Assembly (NCBI RefSeq): GCF_001541925.1 | Contig: NZ_LQMW01000017.1 | Span: forward strand, 124,001 to 188,000 | Direction of reading: 5' to 3' | DNA length: 64,000 bases | Origin: Nitrosopumilus sp. Nsub | Lineage (GTDB): Archaea; Thermoproteota; Nitrososphaeria; Nitrososphaerales; Nitrosopumilaceae | Part shown: in pieces, positions 34,273 to 39,591 of the stretch | Position numbering within the stretch: the stretch's first letter is position 1 | Layout of the letters: each line of letters starts with the position of its first letter | The notes under the pieces: model-generated | The model's input: the letters and a program-made list of their open reading frames with translations, nothing else | Told to the model about the DNA's origin: nothing | Database searches by the model: none | Position numbers and translations under genes: made by a program

Positions 34273-34734
34273 ATGTCAGAGGATAATCATGCTGGAAATA
34301 TTATTGTTAATTTAGCTAGTCTACCAGATTTTTTACGAACACCAATTTTAAAAAAAAGAATGATTGAATTTTTTTCAAAAGATGAAGCAGATAAAAAAGA
34401 AATTATTTTTAATGCATTAGAAGCAGGCCCCACAATCCCATTTCTTAATTTCTCGAAATTGTTTAAGTCATGGTTAAAGATTGTAGCAAATTTATCAGAG
34501 GAGCATAGGGAAGGAATGTTCCTAGCATACATCAACCAATCATTATTAGAACCAGAAAAATTAATTGCATTTAATTTAGATGGAATTTTAGAAATGTTTT
34601 TGCAATTAGAAGAAAATGAAAAAGAGACCATCTCAAGAACAATTAAAAGAATTATTGAAAATCTAAATGAACAAGATAGGAAAAAACTCCTAATTATGAT
34701 ACCAAATAACGCAAAAAGTCACTTGAAAATTTAA
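34273..34734 (+). CDS. Hypothetical protein, 153 aa, all-helical
   Basis: Highly charged, predicted helical protein (LPDFLRTPILKKRMIEFFSK, EENEKETISRTIKRIIENLN) without membrane segments or cysteine motifs. Not recognised. It converges on the YggX-like gene, the two stops sharing a TTAA (34731-34734). Confidence 0.6.
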   Translation: MSEDNHAGNIIVNLASLPDFLRTPILKKRMIEFFSKDEADKKEIIFNALEAGPTIPFLNFSKLFKSWLKIVANLSEEHREGMFLAYINQSLLEPEKLIAFNLDGILEMFLQLEENEKETISRTIKRIIENLNEQDRKKLLIMIPNNAKSHLKI

Positions 34735-35012
34735 TTGATTTGAGGTTCATCAGGTTTTCTATTATCTTCATTGGTATAATCAATGATTTCCCCTTCAGGA
34801 GATAATACACCGACAAAGATTTTTTCATGTTTTTTCAATAATTTTCTGTGATCAGCCATAGACATATCCAATTTCATTTCATTCATGACCATAATCTGAT
34901 ATTCTTTCCATTCAGCCCAACACTTTGTACAAGTTGGATATTTTTCATTTATTGGCCCTAATTGTTCAGTATCAGGAATAGAATTTTTACATTTGGTACA
35001 TGTACGACTCAT
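34731..35012 (-). CDS. YggX-like protein with N-terminal zinc-ribbon cysteines
   Basis: I choose the ATG at 35012 (93 aa) over the frame start at 35072; a TATA-like AGATAAAAGG at about 35033-35042 sits 25 nt upstream. The N-terminus has two CTKC pairs. The middle WAEWKEYQIMVMNEMKLDM followed by ADHRKLL lines up with the bacterial Fe(II)-trafficking protein YggX (W-x-W-x2-Q-x-M-x2-N-E-x-K-L-x-M, then A-x-H-R-K-L-L), including a YTNED segment like its YTPED end. YggX protects Fe-S proteins from oxidants in bacteria; a role here is inferred from similarity. Confidence 0.6.
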   Translation of the reverse strand: MSRTCTKCKNSIPDTEQLGPINEKYPTCTKCWAEWKEYQIMVMNEMKLDMSMADHRKLLKKHEKIFVGVLSPEGEIIDYTNEDNRKPDEPQIN

Positions 35013-35089
35013 AAATCTCAGCAAGAAATTACTCCTTTTATCTTTTTTTGATGTAAAGTAATAATAATTCATGAAGAGTATTCAGTAAT

Positions 35090-36514: not shown

Positions 36515-37120
36515 ATGTTGATCATAATGAAAGTAAATTGTAACGATGAAGGAATTGAAAAAGCAATTCAAATTATTGGAAATGGAGGCATCATAATATT
36601 TCCAACAGATACAGTATATGGAATAGGTTGTGATCCATACAATGAAAATGCGGTAAAAAAAATTTATGAAATTAAATCAAGAGATAAAATAAAATCATTA
36701 CCAGTATTAGCACATTCAATAGGGATAGTTAAACAAATTACTACAATAGATGAATTTACTGAAAAAATTATTAGAAAATATTGGCCCGGACCACTTACAT
36801 TAATTTTAAAATTAAAAGATAAGAATTTAAAAAAATCATTAGATTTAGAAGATAAAATTGCAGTAAGAATTCCAAATTCAGAATGTTCTTTAAAATTATT
36901 AGAAAAGTGTGGTTTACTTGTTGGAACAAGTGCAAATATTTCTGGAGATTCAGCATTTACAAATCCAGAAAAATGTATCAAAAATGTCAAAAAATTTGAT
37001 GTTTTTGTAGATGGAGGAACAATTACAAGTAAAGGAGAATCAACAATAATTGAAATAGAAAATGAAAAAATTCGTATTATTAGGCAAGGGGCATTAAAAA
37101 AAGAGGATATCAAGATTTGA
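36515..37120 (+). CDS. tsaC: L-threonylcarbamoyladenylate synthase (Sua5/YrdC/TsaC)
   Basis: Makes threonylcarbamoyl-AMP from Thr, bicarbonate and ATP, the first step of t6A37 tRNA modification. The YrdC domain is complete (GGIIIFPTDTVYGIGCDPYN, KYWPGPLTLIL, VGTSANISG). 201 aa corresponds to the YrdC domain without the Sua5 C-terminal domain. ATGs at 36515 and 36527 are both possible. Its stop overlaps the THUMP gene start (TGATG). The Cgi121 fusion, also a t6A gene, lies just beyond. Confidence 0.92.
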   Translation: MLIIMKVNCNDEGIEKAIQIIGNGGIIIFPTDTVYGIGCDPYNENAVKKIYEIKSRDKIKSLPVLAHSIGIVKQITTIDEFTEKIIRKYWPGPLTLILKLKDKNLKKSLDLEDKIAVRIPNSECSLKLLEKCGLLVGTSANISGDSAFTNPEKCIKNVKKFDVFVDGGTITSKGESTIIEIENEKIRIIRQGALKKEDIKI

Positions 37121-37641
37121 TGAATCTAATTGTTACATGTGCTAGAAATTTAGAAGGAGAGACTGAAGAAGAAATAATAGATATTTTAGATGAATTAGGA
37201 GATCCTGATGTAAAAATTTCTGTTAGTAATATGTCTGGAATAATTACAGTTCAAACAAAATTAGATCCCATAGAAGTAGTTAGAAAAATGAAGGAGATGT
37301 TATTAGATGAACCTTGGAGTATCAGATACTGTCTAAGAGTCATTCCAATACAAAAAATTGTTGAAACAAATCTTGAAAAAATTCAAGAATGTATTTCTAG
37401 TATTTCAGACAAAATTGAAGAAAACGAATCCTACAGAATTTTGATTGAAAAAAGAAATTCAGATATTTCAAGTAAAGAAATAATCACAAATATTGCAAAT
37501 CAGATAAAAAACAAAGTTTCATTAGATTTTCCAGATAAAATTATTTTAATTGAGATATTAGGAATTGTTACAGGAATTTCACTCATTAAAAAATCAGATA
37601 TACTTAGTCTAGAAAAAACTAAACGAAGTATGTCAGAGTAA
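37120..37641 (+). CDS. THUMP-domain protein (Tan1-like)
   Basis: 173 aa. MNLIVTCARNLEGETEEEI, then a middle with TKLDPIEVVRKMKEML and the C-terminal VSLDFPDKIILIEILGIVTG match stand-alone THUMP proteins such as Tan1, which assists tRNA ac4C12 acetylation by binding tRNA. The frame opens at TTG 37117, but the ATG at 37120 is preferred. It shares one base with tsaC, so a common tRNA-modification transcript is likely. Its end overlaps the convergent Cgi121-fusion gene by 9 nt. Confidence 0.82.
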   Translation: MNLIVTCARNLEGETEEEIIDILDELGDPDVKISVSNMSGIITVQTKLDPIEVVRKMKEMLLDEPWSIRYCLRVIPIQKIVETNLEKIQECISSISDKIEENESYRILIEKRNSDISSKEIITNIANQIKNKVSLDFPDKIILIEILGIVTGISLIKKSDILSLEKTKRSMSE

Positions 37642-38406
37642 GATAGAAGCCTTTTCTACCAATATATCTTCTAGAGGAGTTTTTGAATATATTGAATCAA
37701 TATGTTTTTTTGAAATGTTGAAATATTTTTTAATAAATAAAGTATTATTTTTTAAAAATAAATTCACACATAATGGAGATAATTCAGAGTATAAAGAATT
37801 AAAATAATTTTTGTTCCCAATAACAATTAAAATAAAATTTACTGAAGGTTTCAAACCAACAGAAGAAATTGCGTTAGAAATTTGTAATGTCGATGCAAAT
37901 CTCATTAAAATATCAGTTTCAAGTTTATGAGATAACAAGATATTATTTTTTTCGGCATTAAGTGAGATTGATAAAATTTTCTTTAGATGAGAAGCATTTA
38001 GAATAAAATTACTTGAAATAACTTGAAATTTTAATTGTGGATATTTTGCTCTTAAATCATCAATAAATTGAATATCAATTTTTTTTTGACCACGAATTTC
38101 AAGTACATGGATTTGTTTTCTTTCAATTTCAAAAGTTAATTTTTTTGAAGAGCCACCATGAATTACAGGAATAATACTTACAACATCACCATCAGAAATT
38201 TTTGTATCTCTTCCATTCATTGCTGAAGAATCAGAACCATTAATTGCAATTAAGAGATTTTCAATATCAAGTTCAGAAGTGTTACTAGGTTTAATTTTTA
38301 CCAGATGTTCTAATAATTCACTCACAGATAAATTAGATTTTTCAATTTGCAATTGTTCAGAATTAAATGATTTTTTTGCACCTCCAACTAATTTGATAGT
38401 AATCAT
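37633..38406 (-). CDS. Fusion of MoaD/Urm1-like beta-grasp domain with KEOPS subunit Cgi121
   Basis: 257 aa. Residues 1-87 look like a MoaD/ThiS/Urm1 ubiquitin-like domain: MITIKLVGGAKKSF at the start, LLIAINGSDSSA, and DGDVVSIIPVIHGGSS with a Gly-Gly (84-85) at the position where such proteins normally end. Residues 88-257 resemble Cgi121, the KEOPS subunit that binds tRNA and the Bud32 kinase: LSHKLETDILMRFASTLQIS, AISSVGLKPSVNFILIVIG, and a C-terminal LEDILVEKASILL. The Gly-Gly is internal, so conjugation or thiocarboxylation would need processing. Nearby tsaC and THUMP genes support a tRNA-modification role. Domain calls are by eye. Confidence 0.72.
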   Translation of the reverse strand: MITIKLVGGAKKSFNSEQLQIEKSNLSVSELLEHLVKIKPSNTSELDIENLLIAINGSDSSAMNGRDTKISDGDVVSIIPVIHGGSSKKLTFEIERKQIHVLEIRGQKKIDIQFIDDLRAKYPQLKFQVISSNFILNASHLKKILSISLNAEKNNILLSHKLETDILMRFASTLQISNAISSVGLKPSVNFILIVIGNKNYFNSLYSELSPLCVNLFLKNNTLFIKKYFNISKKHIDSIYSKTPLEDILVEKASILL

Positions 38407-38448: not shown

Positions 38449-38802
38449 TTATTCAGATTTCTCTTCTACAGATTCAGTTGTAGTATTGATTGTCTCGACT
38501 TCCTCATTTGTAAGAGTTATTTCTTCAACGGTTTCAGAAACATCTTCAGAGTCTGCAATTTCTAGTGAAGGATCTTGCTCTTCATTATTAGAAGAATCAA
38601 CATTGCCATCTTGTTTGTATTGCTCGTTGAGAATTTGTTTTTTATTAAATCTTGTAATATAACCTGCAACTTTATTTTTCAATCCTTTTGAGCGGATAAT
38701 AGTAATTTGATTTAGTGCTTTTTTATTTTCAGTAAAATCTTCACCAAACTTTGTCTTATGGTCATTTAATACTTCAAATGAAAGACGCTTTATTCTATCC
38801 AC
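38449..38802 (-). CDS. rps17e: 30S ribosomal protein eS17 with acidic C-terminal extension
   Basis: The first 57 residues (MDRIKRLSFEVLNDHKTKFG, DFTENKKALNQI, KGLKNKVAGYITRF) are eS17, an archaeal/eukaryotic small-subunit protein normally 60-70 aa in archaea. The remaining 60 residues are an acidic, Glu/Ser/Thr-rich low-complexity tail (EEQDPSLEIADSEDVSE...) not expected in the family. The start is GTG at 38802. The tail is real coding in frame; a frameshift is unlikely because composition stays biased and no other frame continues. Confidence 0.85.
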   Translation of the reverse strand: MDRIKRLSFEVLNDHKTKFGEDFTENKKALNQITIIRSKGLKNKVAGYITRFNKKQILNEQYKQDGNVDSSNNEEQDPSLEIADSEDVSETVEEITLTNEEVETINTTTESVEEKSE

Positions 38803-38832: not shown

Positions 38833-39591
38833 CTATATTCCAAGATAGCGTTTTGTATTTTCTTCTAAGAGATATGACATATCATCAAATGTTTTTTCAA
38901 GAACTTTTGAGGCACTAAAAATGACACTTGGTATAAAACTGATCTGTCCAGATTTCATTTCAAAACATCTAGAAAATCTAACAGGACCATCAGTTTCAAC
39001 AAGAATTTTTGATTCATTAGCTTTTGACAATAAACTCTGTTTGTCATTTGCATAAATCATTACAGGACCAAAAGATACAAAAAAATCCATATCCATAGCT
39101 TTTTGAAGTTGTTTTTTGCTTCCATCAAACCAATGCAATAAAGCATGTTTTGTATCATACGAAGTCATTATTTCAAAAATATCATCAAGACTTTTTCGCG
39201 AATGAATAGATACAGGTTTATGAAATTTTTCTGCAGATGAAAGTAAAGATTCAAAGACATGAATTTGTCTTTGAGTATCATCATTATTTTTACAATAGGT
39301 TGGATCTAATCCAATTTCTCCAATTCCAGAAATTGTATTTTGATTTAATTCTATTAAGTCATTAATTTTTTCAAGATCATTATCATTTGCACATTCAGGA
39401 TGAATTCCAATAAAAGGTAAAACAAGATCACTTTTTTTTGATAAAGATAACGTTAAGAGAGAATTTTCAAAATTCATAGAAACACAACATGCTTTAATTT
39501 TAAGAGAATCCATTTGAGTTAAAATAAAATCAATTTCAGGCAAATATGCAGAATCAGACAGATGAATATGAGAATCAAATAACCAAGTCAT
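38833..39591 (-). CDS. tatD: TatD-family metal-dependent hydrolase
   Basis: TIM-barrel metallohydrolase; relatives are 3'-5' DNases or tRNA-quality nucleases. Metal motifs are FDSHIHLSD at the N-terminus, GEIGLDPTY, HKPVSIHSRKS, LLHWFDGS and VETDGP. Length 252 aa is normal. Lies directly upstream of eS17 on the same strand (30-nt gap). Confidence 0.88.
   Translation of the reverse strand: MTWLFDSHIHLSDSAYLPEIDFILTQMDSLKIKACCVSMNFENSLLTLSLSKKSDLVLPFIGIHPECANDNDLEKINDLIELNQNTISGIGEIGLDPTYCKNNDDTQRQIHVFESLLSSAEKFHKPVSIHSRKSLDDIFEIMTSYDTKHALLHWFDGSKKQLQKAMDMDFFVSFGPVMIYANDKQSLLSKANESKILVETDGPVRFSRCFEMKSGQISFIPSVIFSASKVLEKTFDDMSYLLEENTKRYLGI

What the first reader, a model, noticed from the sequence alone, without database searches (positions are those of the whole stretch)
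37633..38406. Ubiquitin-like (MoaD/Urm1-type) domain fused to KEOPS subunit Cgi121
Seen: residues 1-87 resemble a beta-grasp sulfur-carrier domain ending DGDVVSIIPVIHGG, and residues 88-257 resemble Cgi121. Known: Cgi121 delivers tRNA to the KEOPS complex for t6A; Urm1/SAMP/MoaD are sulfur carriers or protein tags that act through a terminal Gly-Gly. Inference: the fusion may be processed after Gly85, or the beta-grasp domain may act as a docking module in KEOPS. tsaC and a THUMP protein sit next to it. If it is conserved in the lineage it links sulfur-carrier biology and t6A in one polypeptide.
Basis: partly seen in the sequence, partly recalled or inferred. Interest (0 to 1): 0.75.

Follow-up and report, generated by a model that had tools for sequence, protein, structure and literature searches.

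The report
Urm1-like protein fused to KEOPS Cgi121
This archaeal gene joins a ubiquitin-like sulfur-carrier protein to a subunit of the tRNA-modifying KEOPS complex; the fusion was published in 2010, but relatives that encode the two halves as separate neighbouring genes, split at or just after the Gly-Gly, suggest it is made as one chain and then cut in two.

Summary
The minus-strand ORF at 37633-38406 encodes 257 aa: an Urm1/MoaD-like beta-grasp domain (residues 1-85, ending HGG), a short flexible linker, then a KEOPS Cgi121 domain (about 90-257). Family models, an AlphaFold2 model (pLDDT 92.9) and Foldseek hits to solved Urm1 and Cgi121 structures agree.

The fusion is not new: Makarova & Koonin (2010, PMC2948915) reported it as conserved in all thaumarchaea then available.

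What I did not find in the literature: across the class and phylum the two halves are often separate neighbouring genes. In 54 such genomes (20 families) the Ubl carries HGG; in 38 the stop codon follows it directly. Fused and split states interchange at least 8 times on a quick tree, at this joint. One genome fuses the same Ubl, after HGG, to a phosphoribosyltransferase instead. HGG is invariant in 62/62 aligned fusions although the linker behind it varies.

Most likely this is a Ubl precursor cut after Gly85, probably by a JAMM protease (two with intact motif in this genome), releasing an Urm1-like carrier and Cgi121. Cleavage is inferred, not shown. The apparent lack of an E1 here coincides with an assembly gap.

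The parts
37633..38406 (-). Ubl-Cgi121 fusion gene, 257 aa plus stop
   Evidence: ORF; homologous fused ORF in about 140 same-family genomes
38152..38406 (-). Urm1/MoaD-like beta-grasp (Ubl) domain, residues 1-85
   Evidence: Pfam ThiS/Urm1; AF2 model; Foldseek to Urm1, SAMP1, MoaD
38152..38160 (-). His83-Gly84-Gly85 motif, the proposed cleavage point and mature Ubl C terminus
   Evidence: Invariant in 62/62 aligned fusions; is the literal or near-literal C terminus in split relatives
38140..38151 (-). Linker, residues 86-89 (SSKK)
   Evidence: Low confidence in AF2 (block 81-90 pLDDT 68); variable columns in the alignment
37636..38139 (-). KEOPS subunit Cgi121 domain, residues 90-257
   Evidence: NCBIfam NF011465 141 bits; Foldseek to Cgi121; 5 of the 7 alignable CCA-tail contact residues of M. 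jannaschii Cgi121 are kept
38449..38802 (-). Ribosomal protein S17e, immediately upstream on the same strand
   Evidence: Pfam Ribosomal_S17e 1.5e-14; the neighbourhood is conserved and was described in 2010
38833..39591 (-). TatD-family nuclease, same strand, upstream of S17e
   Evidence: Pfam TatD_DNase 2.9e-47; conserved neighbour
37117..37641 (+). THUMP-domain protein, convergent, 3' ends overlap by 9 bases
   Evidence: Pfam THUMP 8.8e-7; conserved neighbour
36515..37120 (+). TsaC/Sua5-family threonylcarbamoyl-AMP synthase (first step of t6A)
   Evidence: NCBIfam TIGR00057 175 bits, cut-off 123

Best explanation
The gene makes a linear precursor of two proteins: an Urm1-like ubiquitin-fold sulfur carrier or modifier, and the KEOPS subunit Cgi121. 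A protease, most likely one of the JAMM (desampylase-like) metalloproteases in the genome, cuts after Gly85 (HGG|S). The released Ubl has a Gly-Gly end that a UbaA/MoeB-type E1 could activate for sulfur transfer (for example tRNA thiolation) or protein tagging. The released Cgi121 joins KEOPS and binds the tRNA CCA end during t6A synthesis. The fusion then mainly gives equal, coupled production of the two tRNA-modification proteins, much as ubiquitin is made fused to ribosomal proteins. Shown here: the architecture, the invariant HGG, the split relatives ending at or just behind HGG, the fusion of the same kind of Ubl to another partner at the same point, the JAMM genes, and the Cgi121 sequence features. 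Inferred: the cleavage, the protease, the activation by E1, and the functions of the products.
For: HGG is invariant in 62/62 aligned fusions down to about 30% identity, whereas linker columns 87, 90 and 91 have entropies of 2.4-3.3 bits. In 54 genomes from 20 families the Ubl is a separate ORF upstream of cgi121 on the same strand; in 38 the stop follows HGG directly, in 53 within 9 codons. At least 8 fused/split changes on a quick tree, at the HGG joint. In L151 the same kind of Ubl is fused after HGG to a phosphoribosyltransferase (Pfam Pribosyltran 3.3e-26), the gene that lies between ubl and cgi121 in related genomes. The second Ubl of the genus is likewise N-terminally fused, to its E1, with a GG|S joint (VAGGSE). 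JAMM genes occur in all 21 genomes tested; both in this genome keep the HSHx7SxxD motif, and one resembles desampylase (52 bits, below the family cut-off). Published precedents: MoaX, a MoaD-MoaE fusion, is cut between Gly82 and Ser83, which is required for activity (PMC4326299); a JAMM cleaves the Deinococcus MoaD-MoaE fusion (PMC8832034); in Caldiarchaeum, Rpn11 cuts the ubiquitin precursor after Gly-Gly and CsJAMM cuts SAMP precursors (PMC6043591).
Against: No direct evidence of cleavage in any of these archaea. HGG could be kept for an uncleaved role, such as an intramolecular contact. About 140 of 142 same-family genomes keep the fusion, which could mean the link itself is useful. An E1 gene could not be found in this genome's assembly, although its slot is an assembly gap. 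The two splits within the family (G028, G105) could be sequencing errors.
Confidence: 0.65

Rival explanations
1. Permanent docking module: the chain is never cut; the Ubl domain rides on KEOPS through Cgi121 and recruits a partner (for example an E1, a tRNA thiolase or the proteasome) non-covalently.
For: The fusion is stable across about 140 genomes of the family; the two domains are both confidently folded with a short linker.
Against: Does not explain why HGG is invariant while the linker behind it varies, why breakpoints in relatives fall at or just behind HGG, or why the same kind of Ubl is fused to a phosphoribosyltransferase elsewhere.
Confidence: 0.17
2. Regulatory tag: the Ubl, once freed or as part of the fusion, modifies KEOPS or nearby proteins such as S17e covalently (SAMPylation) and so regulates t6A synthesis or translation, as suggested by Makarova & Koonin 2010.
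For: Conserved S17e and Cgi121 linkage even in many split genomes; published hypothesis.
Against: No conjugates are known; gene linkage alone does not show modification. This rival is compatible with cleavage and differs mainly in the fate of the Ubl.
Confidence: 0.12
3. Folding or expression aid only: the Ubl is an N-terminal solubility partner for Cgi121 and has lost its own carrier function.
For: N-terminal Ubl fusions commonly aid folding (general knowledge).
Against: Invariant HGG and other invariant Ubl residues argue for a retained carrier function; PF02597 finds no other Ubl in this assembly, though the Ubl-E1 gene may lie in the gap.
Confidence: 0.06

Closest known systems
Thaumarchaeal Ubl-Cgi121 fusion of Makarova & Koonin 2010 (PMC2948915)
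   Same: The same fusion, in the same lineage, with the same S17 neighbour; they already proposed a link between Ubl proteins, tRNA modification and KEOPS.
   Different: They described it as conserved in all thaumarchaeal genomes then known; the wider sample here shows many families outside the window's own with separate neighbouring genes split at HGG, and one Ubl-phosphoribosyltransferase fusion.
MoaX (MoaD-MoaE fusion) of Mycobacterium tuberculosis and MoaD-MoaE of Deinococcus
   Same: Ubl/sulfur carrier fused N-terminally to a partner; cleavage after the second Gly at a GG|S joint shown for MoaX, and cleavage by a JAMM shown for Deinococcus.
   Different: The partner is the molybdopterin synthase subunit that directly uses the carrier; Cgi121 is a tRNA-binding KEOPS subunit with no known sulfur chemistry.
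Ubiquitin precursors (ubiquitin-ribosomal protein fusions; Caldiarchaeum CsUb precursor)
   Same: Ubl followed by extra sequence after Gly-Gly; in Caldiarchaeum an Rpn11 (JAMM) protease matures it.
   Different: The CsUb tail is 9 residues, not a functional protein; here the downstream part is a complete KEOPS subunit.
Urm1 / archaeal SAMP
   Same: Beta-grasp fold and HGG end; S. solfataricus Urm1 (4wwm) also has HGG, and Urm1 homologues of Sulfolobales neighbour S17 (PMC2948915).
   Different: Encoded here as the N-terminal half of a longer chain.

Membership tests
Urm1/MoaD/ThiS ubiquitin-like sulfur carriers | Beta-grasp fold | tested here: met
   Pfam ThiS and Urm1 above cut-off; AF2 and Foldseek to Urm1, SAMP1, MoaD
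Urm1/MoaD/ThiS ubiquitin-like sulfur carriers | Gly-Gly motif | tested here: met
   HGG invariant in 62/62 aligned fusions
Urm1/MoaD/ThiS ubiquitin-like sulfur carriers | Gly-Gly at a free C terminus | tested here: inconclusive
   Internal in the encoded chain of the window; terminal in 38 of 54 split relatives; processing not shown
Urm1/MoaD/ThiS ubiquitin-like sulfur carriers | Cognate E1 (UbaA/MoeB/ThiF) in the genome | tested here: inconclusive
   Not found in G000, but the syntenic E1 slot of G065 falls between the ends of contigs C11 and C5; all 12 single-contig genomes of the genus have it
Urm1/MoaD/ThiS ubiquitin-like sulfur carriers | Thiocarboxylate formation or conjugation | not testable with these tools
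   Needs biochemistry
KEOPS subunit Cgi121 | Family profile match | tested here: met
   NCBIfam NF011465 141 bits vs 40; Pfam CGI-121 24.0 vs 25, just short
KEOPS subunit Cgi121 | Cgi121 fold | tested here: met
   Foldseek hits to 4ww5_B, 8up5_C, 7kjt_H and others
KEOPS subunit Cgi121 | tRNA CCA-tail contact residues of M. jannaschii Cgi121 (PMC7718258) | tested here: met
   Mostly kept: Gln28, Gln71, Ile72, Ile76, Gly80 correspond to Q128, Q175, I176, I180, G184 (58-62 of 62 rows); Lys56 and Met60 are replaced (H160 with K161 beside it, T164); Phe21 lies outside the alignment
KEOPS subunit Cgi121 | Other KEOPS subunits in the genome | tested here: met
   Kae1 409.7 bits, two Pcc1-family genes; Bud32 not searched separately
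KEOPS subunit Cgi121 | Binding to Bud32 and tRNA | not testable with these tools
   Needs biochemistry
Cleaved Ubl precursor fusions (MoaX-like, pro-ubiquitin-like) | Partner joined directly behind Gly-Gly | tested here: met
   HGG|S joint
Cleaved Ubl precursor fusions (MoaX-like, pro-ubiquitin-like) | Candidate processing protease with intact active-site motif | tested here: met
   Two JAMM genes with HSHx7SxxD in G000
Cleaved Ubl precursor fusions (MoaX-like, pro-ubiquitin-like) | Cleavage after the second Gly | not testable with these tools
   Needs proteomics or an in vitro assay

The most novel reading that the evidence does not exclude
An old ubl-cgi121 gene pair of the Thermoproteota, repeatedly fused and unfused at the HGG, in which the fused form is a precursor cut by a JAMM protease, so that an Urm1-like carrier and a KEOPS subunit are produced in fixed ratio, tying an Urm1-type pathway and t6A synthesis together at the level of one translation product.
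Probability: 0.55. Interest if true: 0.6.

Novelty: already known. Interest (0 to 1): 0.45.

Why it matters
The fusion is a clear genomic link between ubiquitin-like proteins and the KEOPS/t6A machinery in archaea, and I found no follow-up since 2010 in the open literature searched. The fused/split series found here turns a single fusion into a testable statement: the Ubl works as a free Gly-Gly-ended protein, and the fusion must be processed. If so, it would be an archaeal counterpart of the ubiquitin-ribosomal protein fusions of eukaryotes, with a KEOPS subunit as the passenger.

Tried and rejected
E1 loss as a natural experiment: PF00899 finds no E1 in this genome and in about 15 of 56 good genomes of the genus, which at first looked like a clade that keeps HGG without E1. 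Rejected for this genome: the E1 locus of the close relative G065 aligns on both sides to the very ends of contigs C11 (48,561 bases) and C5 (40,518 bases), so it is an assembly gap; all 12 single-contig genomes have E1. I therefore draw no conclusion from its absence.

The second Ubl being degenerate (which would leave the fusion as the only carrier): rejected, the Ubl of the Ubl-E1 protein keeps its GG (VAGGSE).

Phyla outside the window's own were not searched. The tree is a quick one with long branches and 25 weakly supported forks, so I use only the minimum number of changes, not their direction. A literature search for later work on the fusion found none in the open-access library; subscription papers were not searched.

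Full report
What is there. The ORF at 37633-38406 reads on the minus strand from ATG to stop, 257 aa. The plus strand of the same stretch is full of stops in the frame read. Residues 1-85 are a ubiquitin-like beta-grasp domain: Pfam ThiS 45.3 bits (cut-off 22.5) and Urm1 22.6 (21.8). Residues about 90-257 are Cgi121: NCBIfam Cgi121 equivalog 141 bits (cut-off 40), while Pfam CGI-121 falls just short of its cut-off (24.0 vs 25). An AlphaFold2 model from an alignment of 62 homologues has mean pLDDT 92.9, dropping to 68 in block 81-90; pTM 0.68 says the relative placing of the two domains is uncertain. Foldseek against the PDB gives Cgi121 from yeast, human, plant and archaeal KEOPS, including the tRNA-bound complex 8up5, and, for the N-terminal part, Urm1, SAMP1 and MoaD, including the Uba4-Urm1 and MoeB-MoaD complexes.

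Known already. [quoted passage not shown] No later paper on it was found in the open library.

Spread. In a sample of 250 genomes of the class, the fused ORF is open in about 140 of 142 matched genomes of the window's family (my count of the listed matches). Outside that family a profile of the fusion (A1) mostly finds the two halves as separate pieces, often lying next to each other, and many such pairs are found further out in the phylum. Reading the loci shows that the Ubl is a separate ORF on the same strand upstream of cgi121 in 54 genomes from 20 families and 41 genera; in 38 the stop codon follows HGG directly, in 53 within nine codons. These loci were picked because they matched, so the counts are not frequencies. 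First possible start codons of cgi121 often overlap or abut the Ubl stop. In several groups a phosphoribosyltransferase gene lies between the two. In genus g22 of family f3 the Ubl has no cgi121 within the fetched stretch but keeps its S17e neighbour, mostly with TatD.

Fusion and fission at one point. Fused forms occur in the window's family, in part of one genus of family f3 (g26, which also holds split forms), and in single genomes of f17 and f19. On a quick tree of 85 concatenated Ubl-Cgi121 rows the fewest fused/split changes is 8. The tree has long branches and weak forks, so the number is approximate and the direction is not determined. Two splits inside the window's family (G028: HGGA then stop; G105: HGG plus seven residues then a frame change) may be real or sequencing errors. 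The many HGG-stop cases elsewhere are too consistent for that. In L151 the same kind of Ubl is fused, right behind HGG, to the phosphoribosyltransferase. The other Ubl of the genus is N-terminal to its E1 with VAGGSE at the joint.

Conservation. His83, Gly84 and Gly85 are invariant in 62 of 62 aligned fusions, while the positions behind them vary (S/A/T/N and others at 86; 2.4-3.3 bits at 87, 90, 91). An inert linker would not be expected to behave so. In the Cgi121 half, five residues that contact the tRNA CCA end in M. jannaschii Cgi121 (Gln28, Gln71, Ile72, Ile76, Gly80; PMC7718258) are kept (Q128, Q175, I176, I180, G184), while Lys56 and Met60 are not. Kae1 and two Pcc1-family genes are in the genome.

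Machinery. Two JAMM genes are present in this genome, both with the HSHx7SxxD motif; one is nearest to the desampylase model, below its cut-off. No E1 is found in the assembly, but the locus that carries it in the close relative G065 falls exactly between the ends of two contigs, so absence cannot be claimed. All 12 single-contig genomes of the genus have it.

Interpretation. The simplest account is a precursor that is cut after Gly85. The split relatives show that the Ubl is made as a free protein with HGG at or near its end; the fusion keeps exactly that motif; different partners are joined at that point; and precedents exist for cutting such joints: MoaX between Gly82 and Ser83 (PMC4326299), Deinococcus MoaD-MoaE by a JAMM (PMC8832034), and in Caldiarchaeum the ubiquitin precursor by Rpn11 and SAMP precursors by a JAMM (PMC6043591). 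Cleavage, the identity of the protease and what the free Ubl does (tRNA thiolation, tagging, or both) remain inference. A permanent docking module is the main rival and is less favoured because it explains neither the invariant HGG nor the breakpoints.

Verdict. The fused/split series at the Gly-Gly is the addition of this study and makes the processing hypothesis directly testable.

Noticed in passing
38449-38802 (-): Ribosomal protein S17e here is 117 aa, with an acidic, Glu/Ser/Thr-rich C-terminal tail beyond the 67-position NCBIfam S17e model, which matches only residues 3-56.
   Followed up: no
L151 689-1621 (+) (G333:C10): Ubl domain ending HGG fused in one ORF to a phosphoribosyltransferase, followed by cgi121; in related genomes ubl, phosphoribosyltransferase and cgi121 are three separate genes in a row.
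   Followed up: partly
L043 8413-9732 (+) and L039-L042: The Nitrosopumilus-type E1 is an N-terminal Ubl-E1 fusion whose Ubl also ends in a GG|S joint (VAGGSE), so it may be processed in the same way.
   Followed up: partly
34731-35072 (-): 113-aa protein with a marginal match to the bacterial Fe(2+) trafficking family (Pfam PF04362, 27.8 bits vs cut-off 27).
   Followed up: no
G000 C12:27039-27254 and C5:4792-4989 (L166, L167): Two Pcc1-family genes in the genome; one may be a Gon7/Pcc2-like KEOPS subunit.
   Followed up: no
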